Source of the DNA: Bacteriovoracaceae bacterium
GTDB taxonomy: Bacteria > Bdellovibrionota > Bacteriovoracia > Bacteriovoracales > Bacteriovoracaceae
NCBI GenBank assembly: GCA_016784965.1
Contig: JADHTQ010000038.1
Location: 1-46,120, forward strand
Direction: 5' to 3'
DNA: 46,120 nt
A model generated the notes under the pieces. That model searched no databases. It was not told where the DNA came from and was given only the letters and a program-made list of their open reading frames with translations. Both the position numbers and the translations under genes were made by a program. Positions 34,754 to 44,752 of this stretch are shown here, piece by piece (position 1 is the stretch's first letter; each line of letters starts with the position of its first letter).

Positions 34754-36034
34754 TTAGAAAAAACCGGCCAAGGGGAGTCCTATTGATAATCCCCACATGG
34801 TCGCAGATCTATTTTTGTTAGTCCAGCTAATGTAATTTAGCTCCCAAAAGACCTTCTTGCCCCATCTTACCCATAGATTTTTGTAATCTGGTACTCGGTA
34901 CAAAGAGATCAACATACCATACATCGCCAGATAATTTTCCCAACCAAACGGATTGTGAAAAGTTACTTCAAACCCTTGGGGAAATAAAAATTGATTGTAC
35001 AACTTAGAATTAGTTTTGTGCTCAAAAGTAACAAGTTGTCCGCCCAGCAGAGCGACCACATTTACCCGTTGGTCTAAGGCTTCACCAATGTCGTAAGCAA
35101 AATAGATACCCAAGTTATTAAATAGTGAGCCATTCCAAACTGTAGCATTAAAGCCCCTAATGGAAGCAATATCTGTCACCGAAAAATTACCATAGAGCAT
35201 AAAAGAAGGGGCCACCCTACTTTCCATTATCATATCATTTTCTTTGGTATCTAAAAAATATGGCCCAAAACCATAAGCTGTTTTAAAGCGGTGCAGACGT
35301 TTTGGAAGCAAGGCCTTTATTTTTATAACTCTTTTTTTCTTTTTATGGTCATACACCGTGGCGACAACTGGATTAGTTCCTGTAATAACAGATACAAAAG
35401 GAGCAGAGCTGCCATCTGATAATTTAATGTTGGGAGATGACCAGGTAATTTCCAGACGTGGTCTCTCACTCCCCCACTTTCCGATGCGGGCCAAATGGCA
35501 ACCTACAGATAGATACTCATTTTCAAGACCGATAAATTCAATCATATAACGAGAGCAAGAGTAATCAATTAATCTTCTATTTTCTTTAGTAGTAGAGGGT
35601 GTTGCATAAATTTTTATTAATCCACCTGGTTTGCCATTTGCAACAATTTGAACATCTCCTGGACTAAATAAATTCACATAAAGTTCTGTGTAGTAATGTC
35701 CATTTCGTTTTTCTAACAAGACGGGATTGTTCATATATTGTAAGTAAATATCCTTACTAGTAGTATATATGGTGATCGCAAGTCTTGCCCTTGGGGTCAA
35801 TAAGTTGTTTGCCTCCCTAATCCATTGCAGGGAATCCTTTACAAAATGGGCCTTAAACTTTATTGATTTATGAGCTTTTGCGGTCTGTACTGTAAAATTC
35901 TCAAGGTTTATTGGCAGGCGCAACTCACCAATAGTAACCGGCCCAAAAGAAATGGAGATGAGTCGTTTACAATTTGCTTGCTCAGTACTCATAAATAACA
36001 ACAAAAATGATAAGCTAATCCATTTCATTTTCAT
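34754..36034 (-). CDS. Exported, probably outer-membrane beta-barrel protein
   Basis: 426 residues with a signal peptide (hydrophobic segment about 6-16, cleavage near ANC-KR). The first half is a soluble beta-rich domain containing TPRARLAITIYTT and CSRYMIEFIG. From about residue 255 the sequence alternates hydrophobic and polar residues and is rich in aromatics (FKTAYGFGPYFLDTKEND, LGIYFAYDIGE, ENYLAMYGMLISLY), then ends LPLAGFF with a terminal Phe as in many outer-membrane barrels. No named family. It follows cysE on the same strand with a 1-base overlap (TAATG), so both may be cotranscribed. Confidence 0.65.
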   Translation of the reverse strand: MKMKWISLSFLLLFMSTEQANCKRLISISFGPVTIGELRLPINLENFTVQTAKAHKSIKFKAHFVKDSLQWIREANNLLTPRARLAITIYTTSKDIYLQYMNNPVLLEKRNGHYYTELYVNLFSPGDVQIVANGKPGGLIKIYATPSTTKENRRLIDYSCSRYMIEFIGLENEYLSVGCHLARIGKWGSERPRLEITWSSPNIKLSDGSSAPFVSVITGTNPVVATVYDHKKKKRVIKIKALLPKRLHRFKTAYGFGPYFLDTKENDMIMESRVAPSFMLYGNFSVTDIASIRGFNATVWNGSLFNNLGIYFAYDIGEALDQRVNVVALLGGQLVTFEHKTNSKLYNQFLFPQGFEVTFHNPFGWENYLAMYGMLISLYRVPDYKNLWVRWGKKVFWELNYISWTNKNRSATMWGLSIGLPLAGFF

Positions 36035-40030: not shown

Positions 40031-40876
40031 TTATGGTGCAGTAAGTGGTTTGATTAGTAGTAACGTTCCACTTTCTTCCAAGCTTTTGTCGCCAGCTTCA
40101 CTAAAGCGCATTGAGGAAGTCCCCTCTGTAAACGACCACTTATGGGTTTTTGTGAAGTGCTTCTTAAGGTATTTTTTTATTGCTGATTTGTGTGAACCTA
40201 AAATGCCAAAAATTCGTACCTCCCCATGAGGTGCCAATACCCTCTTTATTTCAGATAGGGTGGCAAGCCCATCCTCGACAGATAAATTATTGACTAGTTT
40301 GTGGGCCACGATGACATCTATGCTGCTATCTGCAACAGGAATATTGGAAGAACTTCCCCTAATGAGGTGGTCTCCATACTTATTTAGATAATCAATCATC
40401 TGTGTTCCTACATAATTATTAGTAGGGATATCACTGGAATGGTACCAAATATCAAGGCCATACACATCAACTCCCTTAGAGCGAAGATGGGGGAGCAAAC
40501 CGCTTAATCCCTCTCCAAGCGAAAGCACAACTGCCTTATTTGATTTCCAGTGGGCCACTTGTTTTGCATCAATTTTAAGTGCCTTGAGCATTTCTGGTAG
40601 AGCATAATAAATTGTATCACCTGTAACAATAATCTTGTTCACAGTGACACCCATTCCTTGGCCCCCTCTGTAATTTTTCTCGGGCATGAATAGTTCAAAT
40701 TTGACATCAGATGAGCTTATTGCAAAGTGCCTGACAAAAGGTACTGCTTCTTTGTGACATAGACGGGTGTTTTTTATTAGGCTTCTATTTTGATCAATGG
40801 ATGCAGGTGATCTGGGAGCATCTAAGTGGGTACAACTATATAGGAGTGTGAATAGAAAAATAACCAAACGTGTCAT
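40031..40876 (-). CDS. Lipoprotein with a methyltransferase-like (Rossmann) domain
   Basis: 281 residues. Signal with lipobox LYSC (C15), so it should be exported and lipid-anchored. Residues about 110-245 look like a class I SAM-methyltransferase fold: AVVLSLGEGLSG (motif I, 115-125), YGLDIW with acidic D142 where ribose hydroxyls bind, SSNIPVADSSIDVIVAHKLVNNL (motifs II-III), and LSEIKRVLAPHGEVRIFG (motif IV). Motif I has a Glu instead of the usual Cys/Gly pair. The first 105 residues (with GGQGMGVTVNKIIV) are a separate unknown domain. A SAM-binding domain outside the cytoplasm is unusual; cofactor binding is unproven. No operon partner. Confidence 0.7.
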   Translation of the reverse strand: MTRLVIFLFTLLYSCTHLDAPRSPASIDQNRSLIKNTRLCHKEAVPFVRHFAISSSDVKFELFMPEKNYRGGQGMGVTVNKIIVTGDTIYYALPEMLKALKIDAKQVAHWKSNKAVVLSLGEGLSGLLPHLRSKGVDVYGLDIWYHSSDIPTNNYVGTQMIDYLNKYGDHLIRGSSSNIPVADSSIDVIVAHKLVNNLSVEDGLATLSEIKRVLAPHGEVRIFGILGSHKSAIKKYLKKHFTKTHKWSFTEGTSSMRFSEAGDKSLEESGTLLLIKPLTAP

Positions 40877-41130
40877 TAGCTAATTATCGGAGCCATCATA
40901 CAATTTTATTAGTGATACAGACACAACTGTAGTGTCAAATTAGAATTTGCCGGTGTGGCCTTACAATATTAAGAAGAATTTACATGTTCCCACAAGACAG
41001 AAACCACATAACAGCGCAAAGCGTTGCTGACTCAACAAACTTCTGCTAAATATTGGCTTACGACATACTTTAAAAGAAGAAAATTAGATATAACAACAAG
41101 TGCTGCTAGCATAATTTTAGGAGAACAAAA

Positions 41131-41466
41131 ATGAACAATTATAAACGACTACTACCTTTAATTTCATTTTCAATTTTATCTATAATGCTCTTTAGTGATG
41201 CTGCCCTAGCAAAATCCTATCCTCCTTTGGGTGAGAGAATGTGCCAACTCTATAAATACTCGAGTCAAGATTGTAAAGGAGCAAAGGATGGTTATGGGCC
41301 CTGTAGATATAATGGGGGTGGGCATGAAGAGTGTTTTGCAGCAACTGCAGGTTATAAATATTGTATAACTACTCATGGACATAATGAATGTCTCAAGGCC
41401 CCTAAAAGCTATGGACATTGCATATTTTATAAAAAAAATCATGCTAAATGTATGCGGCCAAGATAA
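41131..41466 (+). CDS. Secreted small protein with cysteine every ten residues
   Basis: 111 residues with a signal peptide (cleavage probably after ALA, residue 27). The mature part has eight cysteines at 38, 48, 58, 68, 78, 87, 97 and 107, a spacing of 10 throughout except one 9. It can be read as four units of about 20 residues, each C-x(8-9)-C: CQLYKYSSQDC, CRYNGGGHEEC, CITTHGHNEC and CIFYKKNHAKC. In the last three a His lies three before the second Cys (H65, H84, H104), and a Tyr precedes the first (GYGPC, GYKYC, SYGHC). This suggests disulfide or metal binding. SD AGGAG. No family recognised. Confidence 0.75.
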   Translation: MNNYKRLLPLISFSILSIMLFSDAALAKSYPPLGERMCQLYKYSSQDCKGAKDGYGPCRYNGGGHEECFAATAGYKYCITTHGHNECLKAPKSYGHCIFYKKNHAKCMRPR

Positions 41467-41652: not shown

Positions 41653-42462
41653 GTGACCCAAGCTTTAGTTATATCTTTTTTGTCTATTTGCTTTTTTAGT
41701 TGTTCAATTTGTTATGGAAATGGCCAGAGCTCACAAAATATAGAAGACCTAAGCTTAGTATTGAGCCGAAATCCTAATATACTTTATAGGAAGAGAACTT
41801 ACATCTCAGAAATTGATCAAACACCTACAACTACGTCAGAGATAGTTTTATTAAGAGATAACAAATTTGTTCGACTTCATGACTTGAGTGCAGGGTATAC
41901 TGGAGAATTAGATCCCTCTGCGATTTTGGCCGATGTAAGACTAAATATAAGTAACTATCAAGGAAATATATTTGCTTTTGATTTTGTTCTTCCACTACAG
42001 AAATTGGGTGGAGAGAACTTAGCGGCTCCAGTTATGCCAGATTTTGATCAAAAAAGAAAAATACTTTATGTGTCTGCAGATGGGGAAGTTGAGCTAACCC
42101 AAGGAGGATATTGGAGTAAGGAGAAGTCTTCTAAAATTATGGGCAAGTGGAGTAAAGCCGGTGTAAACCATGTTGAACACACGATGTTAAAGGGGGGATT
42201 TATTCATATTGGGACAGTTAACAGTGAGATTAAAACGTATTATAGAAAATTTTCTGGCTTTAATGTCTACGCTATCAGATACAATGAAACCTTGGTGCTT
42301 TTATCAGATGACTTTAACTTTCATAACGCAAACAGCACTGTAAAGAAGCAGGCAAGGGCGCTACACCTATTAAAAAAAAATCATCTAGATAGAATATTAA
42401 AACAAGCAGTTTCAAACAAGGATGACTGTGTTGCAACTGTAATTGCAATTGTTAACAGCTAA
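41653..42462 (+). CDS. Exported protein of unknown function
   Basis: 269 residues from a GTG at 41653, supported by AAGGA six bases before. A hydrophobic signal segment (about 4-20) contains FFSC, which might be a lipobox, though a further Cys (SICYG) makes plain cleavage possible. The body is beta-rich with FVRLHDLSAGYTGELDPS and FAFDFVLPLQKLGGENL. It contains no catalytic motif I recognise. It follows the cysteine-decad gene after about 185 bases. No known family. Confidence 0.65.
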   Translation: MTQALVISFLSICFFSCSICYGNGQSSQNIEDLSLVLSRNPNILYRKRTYISEIDQTPTTTSEIVLLRDNKFVRLHDLSAGYTGELDPSAILADVRLNISNYQGNIFAFDFVLPLQKLGGENLAAPVMPDFDQKRKILYVSADGEVELTQGGYWSKEKSSKIMGKWSKAGVNHVEHTMLKGGFIHIGTVNSEIKTYYRKFSGFNVYAIRYNETLVLLSDDFNFHNANSTVKKQARALHLLKKNHLDRILKQAVSNKDDCVATVIAIVNS

Positions 42463-42577: not shown

Positions 42578-44752
42578 ATGATCCGGCTCAAAAGTAACTT
42601 AAAAGTTACAGTGGTTTTGTTTGTCTTTTTTTTAAACTTATTTACAGGTTCGAATCCTTTGGCATCCGTTGTCGATCCTGTAGGAATCTGGTCACTCAGC
42701 GGTGTTCATAGTGAGTTTGGCCCATATCAGGGAGAACTTGAAGTTTCCTTGGACAAAGATGGTAATCTTTCACTCATTCGATTAATTACTTATGATTTGT
42801 ATAGATATAAAGATCTAAAAGTTCAAGAAATTTGGAGTGGCAAGGGTCGCTTTAAAAACTCCCACCTAGAAGCACACTTTCGTATCAAACAGGCCGACTA
42901 CATTAAAACAGTTGATGATTTAACCCGTACCCCAGAGCAGTTCCAAAAACCTGTGCATCTTAATGCAACATTCAAGCTTCAAAAAAATTCTACGATTACT
43001 TGGATTTTACTCAATAACAGTGTGACTGACCATTTTGATGGAAATAGGCGAAAGCTTGAAGCGGCCCCCCTATGGAAAGATAAAAGGCAACGAATATATT
43101 CTCAGGGAAAAGCGACTTCCATTGCTCAGTCTATAGCAAAATTCATTGTGGAAAACACTGTAATAGCAGATTATAGAAAAGATCCAAAAGTTGCTGTCTT
43201 CGCTGATAGATCTGATTTTAAACAAAAAGCACAATACTTTATAATGGACACTACTGACTATGAGTTTTATCAAGATAGACGCGACACCCTTCGCATCCCC
43301 AACAAGATAATTGATGAAATAAGCTTAGTTGAAGAGCTTTACCGCCATAGTGCATATACATATACTCTTAGTGAAAAGGCCGAAATGGCAGATGAGAAAA
43401 TGCAACAGCTACACATCAATGAAGCCGGCCTGTTTGCCTCTGCCCAAGTTGATGAAAATGGTGATTTTGTGCAGTTTTACTCTGACAATGACGGAGCATT
43501 GTGGTCTGGGATGTATGCCGGATCTCAGGCCATGAGGTATCTGACGACTAAAGATCCACAGGCCCTTTTAAATTTTAAAAAAACCCTTAAGGGAATGATC
43601 CTTTTAATGGACGTCACAGGTGATAAACGCCAATTTGCTCGCACTATCCAGGCCTTTGATCCCGAAAAAAAATTAGACAAAAGTAAATGGAAGAGAGGAT
43701 TAGGTGAGTACGATAGATTTAGTTGGAAGTGTTGTGGCAATAACGACATGGTCAAAGGGATATTTCACGCTTTTGTTTGGGCCTCTGTAGTATTACCCGA
43801 AGACGATGAGCTTCGCCCGGTGCTTAAAAGTCGTGCAAGACTTTTTCCTGATCTTTATGTAGTTGAAGAATCAAAACAAAACCGGACTGTTGCTAGTGGT
43901 ATCGCCGCACTTTGGACTCGTGATCAAAAATATAAGGAGACATATTTTTATGGCCAAACATTTCTTGAATCTATTGCCGAAGCTTTGGGAGTAGCAAATG
44001 GATTTTATGTCGGGGGTGTCGCCGACTGGAGTGGAATTAACCTTGGTGTAGTAGGACTTGTTACAAAAGTTGTACTAGCTCAGGAGATGATCGCCAAGTT
44101 TCCTTCCCCACCTAAAGAAGAAATTGACTATGGAGATGACTATTCAGTAATCGACGGAGCGGTTGCAGCTGGCGTGATTAACGAGGAAGACCTCTTGGAG
44201 CATGCCCGGGAAGCCTTTTTAGATACGTGGAACAACTACTCTGCTGCCAGGCGAGATTTAGTAACTATTGCCGCCTATGCTTTTGCTTACAAAGAAGGAA
44301 CTCGTGGTTTTGGATTTGGGTTTGATGAGGAGGATTTAACCCGAGAAGAAGAGGAGAAAAGTTGGGAAAAAAGAGAGGCATGGGATAAAACTATTAACCA
44401 AGCTGTATGGAGCTTGAGGGAATTTTCTTTTCCACAACATCGCTATAATGTTGCTATCGATTTTAGGTTAAGGCCCACGTGGTGTTTATCTGCATGGCCT
44501 AGACTTCCCTGGAAGTCTGTTAAAAATAAGCAGCCGGTTGAGTATCACTTTCAAGCGGTCGAAGACTTCCCCCTGTTTCAATCTTTGATTTTTGACACAA
44601 ACTTCTTTTGGAAAGATGGCCCCTTTAGCGCTGAAGCATCAGGCTCTCGTGACAGAATACAACCAAGGGCCGATTATCTCTATGCGTACTGGATGTCTCG
44701 CTGGTCAGGCCTTTTGAGTGAAGATGATAGGTGGCAACCTAAAACAATGTAA
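42578..44752 (+). CDS. Large exported protein, possible (alpha/alpha) barrel
   Basis: 724 residues with a signal peptide (hydrophobic about 10-23). Residues about 30-160 are a beta-rich domain beginning DPVGIWSLSGVHSEFGPYQGEL. The rest is mostly helical: GLFASAQVDENGDF, SDNDGALWSGMYAGSQAMRYL, DPQALLNFKKTLKGMILLMDVTG, SWKCCGNNDMVKGIFHAF, and YNVAIDFRLRPTWCLSAW. The 'DNDGALWSGMYAGSQAMRYL...FKKTLKGM' pattern recalls (alpha/alpha)6-barrel glycan-active enzymes such as epimerases and six-hairpin glycosidases, but no catalytic motif is secure. An acidic stretch lies near 600-620. Role unknown. Confidence 0.7.
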   Translation: MIRLKSNLKVTVVLFVFFLNLFTGSNPLASVVDPVGIWSLSGVHSEFGPYQGELEVSLDKDGNLSLIRLITYDLYRYKDLKVQEIWSGKGRFKNSHLEAHFRIKQADYIKTVDDLTRTPEQFQKPVHLNATFKLQKNSTITWILLNNSVTDHFDGNRRKLEAAPLWKDKRQRIYSQGKATSIAQSIAKFIVENTVIADYRKDPKVAVFADRSDFKQKAQYFIMDTTDYEFYQDRRDTLRIPNKIIDEISLVEELYRHSAYTYTLSEKAEMADEKMQQLHINEAGLFASAQVDENGDFVQFYSDNDGALWSGMYAGSQAMRYLTTKDPQALLNFKKTLKGMILLMDVTGDKRQFARTIQAFDPEKKLDKSKWKRGLGEYDRFSWKCCGNNDMVKGIFHAFVWASVVLPEDDELRPVLKSRARLFPDLYVVEESKQNRTVASGIAALWTRDQKYKETYFYGQTFLESIAEALGVANGFYVGGVADWSGINLGVVGLVTKVVLAQEMIAKFPSPPKEEIDYGDDYSVIDGAVAAGVINEEDLLEHAREAFLDTWNNYSAARRDLVTIAAYAFAYKEGTRGFGFGFDEEDLTREEEEKSWEKREAWDKTINQAVWSLREFSFPQHRYNVAIDFRLRPTWCLSAWPRLPWKSVKNKQPVEYHFQAVEDFPLFQSLIFDTNFFWKDGPFSAEASGSRDRIQPRADYLYAYWMSRWSGLLSEDDRWQPKTM

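What the first reader, a model, noticed from the sequence alone, without database searches (positions are those of the whole stretch)
41131..41466. Secreted protein with a cysteine decad repeat
Eight cysteines lie at intervals of ten residues (one of nine), forming four C-x(8-9)-C units, three with His at HxxC and Tyr before the first Cys. This regularity is visible directly and I know no family with it. It might be a stacked disulfide repeat, a metal-binding chain or a toxin-like peptide.
Basis: partly seen in the sequence, partly recalled or inferred. Interest (0 to 1): 0.65.

Follow-up and report, generated by a model that had tools for sequence, protein, structure and literature searches.

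The report
Secreted 20-residue cysteine-stapled helical repeat protein
This small secreted bacterial protein is built from tandem 20-residue units, each most likely two tiny helices pinned together by one disulfide bond; it belongs to an undescribed repeat family found, so far, in scattered Bdellovibrionota (the phylum of the Bdellovibrio-type bacteria) and Elusimicrobiota genomes, and its biological role is unknown.

Summary
ORF 41131-41466 (+) encodes 111 aa with a signal peptide and eight Cys at 38,48,58,68,78,87,97,107. It is no chance pattern: relatives with 3-9 units of GYxxCRxxGxxHxxCLxAxx (20 aa) occur in Bacteriovoracaceae, other Bdellovibrionota and Elusimicrobiota. A profile built without the window finds the ORF at 46-48 bits; 1000 shuffles that keep its Cys in place reach at most 22.8. 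Pfam, NCBIfam, PADLOC, PDB sequence and fold searches give no family that covers it. AlphaFold2 predicts (pLDDT 91; 88 for an 8-unit relative) two short helices per unit, i.e. a helical solenoid with an unusually short repeat. The unit core Y-x2-C-R-x2-G-x5-C matches the helical-hairpin core of plant thionins (22 of 24 segments; 0 of 24 Cys-fixed shuffles), where the two equivalent Cys form a known disulfide. So each unit is probably stapled within itself (C5-C15). The genome has a VKOR-DsbA fusion and other DsbA-like proteins, which could form such bonds. His is absent from whole members while Cys stays, so metal binding is less likely. Function is inferred: a rigid envelope or extracellular binding scaffold. 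An undescribed repeat family; mechanism and role untested.

The parts
41131..41466 (+). CDS, 111 aa, secreted Cys-decad repeat protein
   Evidence: profile match without self
41119..41124 (+). Shine-Dalgarno AGGAGA, 6 nt before ATG
   Evidence: sequence
41131..41211 (+). signal peptide, residues 1-27 (KR, hydrophobic core, AxA-type ALA|KS)
   Evidence: by eye on the translation; no predictor was run
41230..41289 (+). repeat unit 1 (C38, C48), degenerate: no Tyr three before the first Cys, no His
41290..41349 (+). repeat unit 2 GYGPCRYNGGGHEECFAATA (C58, C68)
41350..41406 (+). repeat unit 3 GYKYCITTHGHNECLKAPK (C78, C87; spacer 8)
41407..41463 (+). repeat unit 4 SYGHCIFYKKNHAKCMRPR (C97, C107), C-terminal

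Best explanation
The gene encodes an exported protein made of four tandem 20-residue units. Each unit is a short helix (YxxCR), a Gly turn and a second short helix (HxxC), predicted by AlphaFold2 and not solved. The two Cys of a unit (C5-C15; here C38-C48, C58-C68, C78-C87, C97-C107) are proposed to form a disulfide that pins the two helices together, as the equivalent Cys pair does in the thionin hairpin. The bonds would be put in during export by the cell's VKOR-DsbA oxidant. Stacked units give a rigid, protease-resistant rod or spiral whose faces are made by the variable positions (3, 4, 7, 8, 10, 11, 13, 14, 17, 19, 20). The protein then most likely acts by binding (to a partner protein, the envelope, a surface or prey), with the number of units (3-9 in relatives) setting its length. 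Shown by computation: family, register, predicted secondary structure, presence of the oxidant genes; signal peptide by eye. Inferred: disulfide pairing, solenoid packing, binding function.
For: Relatives with the same unit; homology beyond Cys. AlphaFold2 pLDDT 90.7 / pTM 0.76 for the window protein and 87.8 / 0.70 for an 8-unit relative, helix pair per unit in both. Thionin model positions about 11-28 match 22 of 24 segments (best 4.4e-7) and none of 24 Cys-fixed shuffles; that thionin core is two antiparallel helices whose native pairing is C1-C4, C2-C3, with C2-C3 flanking the R-x2-G stretch (PMC10136942). Nearly all arrays begin with C5 and end with C15, so pairing within the unit leaves no orphan Cys. 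The same C-x9-C module stands alone in other spacing in a neighbouring gene (L073:5198-5731). Own genome has a VKOR-DsbA fusion ORF and further DsbA hits, no DsbB.
Against: No coordinates were available, so Cys-Cys distances in the model were not measured. G307 begins with C15 and ends with C5, and L080 has lost one Cys of a pair. Both the within-unit and the between-unit spacer vary in some members, so spacing does not settle the pairing. AlphaFold confidence for small repeats aligned to themselves can be inflated; the other four models of the long protein had mean pLDDT 70-73. No conserved gene neighbour points to a binding function.
Confidence: 0.55

Rival explanations
1. Same solenoid, but the staples run between units (C15 of one unit to C5 of the next), a CHCH / twin-CX9C-like ladder.
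For: Between-unit spacer is 9 in most members, while G240 varies within the unit (11-12) and the window has 8. The family profile gives weak hits to NDUFA8 and other twin-CX9C proteins (E 6e-4).
Against: Would leave the first and last Cys of almost every array unpaired. CHCH/COX6B hits also appear with Cys-fixed shuffles, so that resemblance may be spacing alone. Predicted helices do not span a C-x9-C in either register.
Confidence: 0.17
2. Metal-binding repeat: C5, H12 and C15 of each unit hold a metal (for example Cu or Zn) in the periplasm or outside.
For: HxxC is in 48 of 49 units of the core set, which was collected with a pattern that asks for His; weak COX17 (copper chaperone) hits in 2 of 24 segments.
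Against: His is absent in all or nearly all units of G140c, G307, G358 and G496 with Cys intact, and in the window's own unit 1; the Cys would be oxidised in an oxidising compartment; no metal gene beside it.
Confidence: 0.12
3. Thionin-like membrane-active or antimicrobial protein secreted against other microbes or prey.
For: Thionin-core match including the Tyr that is conserved in toxic thionins; net positive charge (+7, +15, +16) in the window, G051 and G032 members.
Against: Charge is about zero in the G140a, G203 and Elusimicrobia members; the window protein itself reaches at most 12.6 bits against a cut-off of 23.6; only the 14-residue core is shared, without the thionin N-terminal CC, beta strands and C-terminal half.
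Confidence: 0.13

Closest known systems
Plant thionin / crambin helical-hairpin core (Pfam PF00321, positions ~11-28)
   Same: Y-x2-C-R-x2-G-x5-C with helix-turn-helix; the two Cys form a disulfide in thionins; similarity lost in Cys-fixed shuffles
   Different: Tandem array of only this core; no N-terminal CC, no beta strands predicted, bacterial; window below the Pfam cut-off. Convergence is likelier than descent.
CHCH / twin-CX9C proteins (PF06747, COX17, NDUFA8)
   Same: C-x9-C spacing; small disulfide-stapled helical proteins of an oxidising compartment; weak profile hit
   Different: Helices predicted too short to span CX9C; resemblance also arises from Cys spacing alone; open-ended tandem repeat
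Sel1-like / Helicobacter cysteine-rich proteins (Hcp)
   Same: Secreted bacterial alpha/alpha repeats with a disulfide per repeat (from memory)
   Different: Repeat of about 36-38 residues (from memory) against 20; no PF08238 match
TALE / BurrH alpha-solenoids
   Same: Superhelix of two-helix units; VIA-align Z 4.8-5.1
   Different: 33-35-residue units without the Cys register (from memory); Z in the range given as uninformative

Membership tests
20-residue Cys-decad repeat family defined here | two or more units [GxY]xxCRxxGxxHxxC at 20-residue period | tested here: met
   window units 2-4; profile without window 46-48 bits
20-residue Cys-decad repeat family defined here | secretion signal before the array | tested here: inconclusive
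   signal peptides clear by eye in the window and most complete relatives; no predictor was run, some starts uncertain
Thionin (PF00321) | score over Pfam gathering cut-off | tested here: not met
   window mature protein not reported, its last 58 residues 12.6 bits vs 23.6; only 60-residue pieces of two relatives were seen to just pass (24.1 and 23.9)
Thionin (PF00321) | beta1-alpha1-alpha2-beta2 fold with 6 or 8 Cys incl. N-terminal CC | tested here: not met
   only helices predicted; no CC in the sequence; fold definition from PMC4695807, N-terminal CC from memory
Thionin (PF00321) | hairpin core YxxCRxxG(x5)C | tested here: met
   unit 2 of the window has YGPCRYNGGGHEEC
CHCH / twin CX9C (PF06747) | profile match | tested here: not met
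   no CHCH hit for the window up to E 10; weak CHCH in 3 of 24 segments and in 1 of 24 shuffles
CHCH / twin CX9C (PF06747) | two helices each spanning one CX9C | tested here: not met
   predicted helices 4-8 residues, a turn lies inside every CX9C; prediction only
Sel1-like repeat (PF08238) | profile match, 36-38 residue unit | tested here: not met
   no match; 20-residue unit
Known solved fold | structural match in PDB | tested here: inconclusive
   Foldseek no match E<=0.001; VIA-align best Z 5.8
Disulfide-stapled protein | Cys oxidised in C5-C15 pairs | not testable with these tools
   needs disulfide mapping; oxidant genes present

The most novel reading that the evidence does not exclude
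A so far undescribed class of helical solenoid with about the shortest two-helix repeat known (20 residues), each unit covalently locked by its own disulfide, i.e. the thionin-type hairpin core turned by bacteria into an open-ended building block.
Probability: 0.45. Interest if true: 0.65.

Novelty: new variant of a known kind. Interest (0 to 1): 0.52.

Why it matters
Helical solenoids generally have repeats above 30 residues (general knowledge). A 20-residue unit that is individually stapled would be close to a minimum for the class, useful as a rigid modular scaffold, and would give a clear case of the thionin-type hairpin arising again in bacteria. It also names a secreted family in poorly known lineages (predatory and related Bdellovibrionota, Elusimicrobiota) that current annotation libraries leave blank.

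Tried and rejected
Single-protein scan of genome contigs: no relative. DNA patterns in viral contigs: the frames that translate to the motif are low-complexity, out-of-frame repeats. Phages: nothing usable; plasmids: only weak Cys- or pentapeptide-repeat matches. 6-Cys decad DNA pattern in the family: mostly low-complexity DNA and pentapeptide-like repeat proteins, and the backwards control pattern rings too, but it led to G140 and the second G051 gene. phrog_8574: signal is one 17-residue stretch summed over repeats, set aside. Pfam Decapeptide, FluMu_N, SRCR, RecX hits: weak and below cut-off. Gene context: no shared neighbour among window, G032, G051, G240. Pseudomonadota sample: 1 of 398, a DNA tandem repeat, so the profile is specific. 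G086 hit is likewise a short simple repeat. Fold libraries gave no clear match. Paper searches found no description of the repeat, but most subscription journals and AlphaFold DB could not be searched.

Full report
Observation. The frame 41131-41466 (+) is an ordinary gene: AGGAGA, six bases, ATG, 111 codons. The neighbours are a divergent methyltransferase-like gene (40031-40876, -) and an unknown exported protein (41653-42462, +). The N terminus looks like a signal peptide ending in ALA|KS (by eye). The mature 84 residues carry eight Cys at 38, 48, 58, 68, 78, 87, 97 and 107. Random placement gives all gaps of 9-10 with probability 5e-8.

Relatives. The window genome is a 4.6 Mb assembly with no second copy found. 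Protein search over 97 genomes found two clear relatives: G032 (177 aa, 16 Cys) and G051 (139 aa, 12 Cys), in which every Cys spacer is nine. Their unit, Y..C......H..C, turned into a DNA pattern and scanned over 84,980 species, gave 35 stretches, of which ten are true members once translated: Bdellovibrionota (F1-140 with two genes, N074bin46, Bacteriovoracaceae, Bdellovibrionaceae BDE3) and Elusimicrobia (five loci, four genomes); the rest are simple DNA repeats or did not translate to the motif. G032 is the Bacteriovoracaceae MAG, so the window's own family is probably that one (inference from the shared family label). A profile of three units (A2) rings in 12 of 369 Bdellovibrionota genomes, at least one of which is an artefact (G086), 6 of 341 in the Elusimicrobia phylum, and 1 of 398 Pseudomonadota, an artefact. 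The family is real, patchy and rare. It was not sampled in every phylum, so its limits are not known.

Independence test. A profile that excludes the window scores the ORF at 46-48 bits; Cys-fixed shuffles of the same protein reach at most 22.8 in 1000. Thus shared residues besides Cys (Y2, R6, G9, H12, A18; information content) carry the relation.

Anatomy. Unit consensus: G1 Y2 x x C5 R6 x x G9 x x H12 x x C15 L x A x x. Arrays have 3-9 units. Nearly all begin at C5 and end at C15, so whole units are the counting unit; G307 is the exception. Spacers vary: window unit 3 has 8; G240 has 12, 12, 12, 11, 11 within units and 9 between; G112 8-10 within; G140c has 11 and 13 between some units. His is not universal: G140c, G307, G358 and G496 keep Cys without it in all or nearly all units. 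Units within one protein are more alike than between proteins in the Elusimicrobia members (0.67-0.70 within; 0.59 between these two) and G140a (0.63), much less so in the window (0.26), so arrays seem to have expanded within lineages.

Structure. AlphaFold2 on the mature window protein with 26 aligned segments: pLDDT 90.7, pTM 0.76, helices 28-33 and 38-41, 47-51 and 57-60, 67-72 and 77-80 of the mature chain, i.e. two per unit. An eight-unit relative gives sixteen helices, pLDDT 87.8, pTM 0.70, though its other four models were at 70-73. No solved or viral fold matched; the second look gave Z up to 5.8, including TALE-type solenoids, in the range the tool calls uninformative. Coordinates are not given by the tool, so I could not measure S-S distances.

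Known families. The window protein has no match up to E 1 in Pfam and none up to E 0.1 in NCBIfam or PADLOC. With A2 segments, the Pfam thionin model matched 22 of 24 (best 4.4e-7), over model positions about 11-28. The control: 24 shuffles with Cys kept in place gave no thionin match at all, but did give CHCH and COX6B hits. So the thionin resemblance is a sequence motif, while the CHCH resemblance (also seen against PDB) may be spacing only. The motif corresponds residue by residue: Tyr13, Cys16, Arg17, Gly20 and the next Cys in thionins to Y2, C5, R6, G9, C15. A synthetic thionin fragment of residues 7-32 is two antiparallel helices with native bonds C1-C4 and C2-C3, the latter being this pair (PMC10136942; numbering derived from the peptide printed there). 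This is the best evidence that each unit is stapled within itself. The full thionin fold is not there, and the window protein is below the cut-off, so it is not a thionin.

Oxidation. The own genome has no DsbB match, one VKOR match and five DsbA matches over the cut-off; VKOR and one DsbA lie in a single 388-residue frame with CPxC-type motifs. An oxidising route outside the cytoplasm is therefore plausible, which makes free Cys or metal thiolates in this protein less likely.

Related modules. In G051 a second secreted protein has ten 20-residue units GEGxC(x9)C; several units score well on the unit profile without Cys, most do not, so relation is possible, not shown. In F1-140 the gene next to a repeat gene (L073:5198-5731) holds ACRxxGYTxxxC modules at about 40-residue period; these score better than 97.9-99.5% of shuffles. 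It suggests the C-x9-C hairpin is a movable unit.

Mechanism and role. I commit to a disulfide-stapled helical solenoid that works by binding, 0.55 overall; the fold and stapling are better supported than the role. Nothing in the gene order, and no experiment, points to a partner.

Novelty. The parts are known in kind (helical solenoids, stapled hairpins), the combination and the family are not described in what I could search. Hence 'new variant of a known kind'.

Noticed in passing
L073:5198-5731 (-): Secreted 177-aa protein next to the repeat gene of Bdellovibrionales MAG F1-140, four ~40-aa repeats each with an ACRxxGYTxxxC (C-x9-C) module and two more Cys.
   Followed up: partly
L021:1877-2563 (+): Secreted 228-aa protein of G051 with ten 20-residue GEGxC-x9-C units, 20 Cys, perhaps a distant cousin or a convergent Cys-decad repeat.
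   Followed up: partly
L056:7111-7548 (-): Exported 145-aa protein with tandem 'YKGRYGYDAxARLEGDV' repeats (about 17 residues), no Cys repeat.
   Followed up: no
L155:292-942 (+): Third repeat gene in the same F1-140 genome, units CRSDYGSVxxC without His and with variable linkers.
   Followed up: partly
window 42578-44752 (+): 724-aa exported protein downstream with no Pfam family over its cut-off.
   Followed up: no
window 34754-36034 (-): 426-aa exported protein without a Pfam match, next to a serine-acetyltransferase-like gene.
   Followed up: no
L030-L035: Small proteins in the window's bacterial family with pentapeptide-repeat-like runs rich in NCxF (CDFQATDFTNCQFIDCKFINCNF).
   Followed up: no
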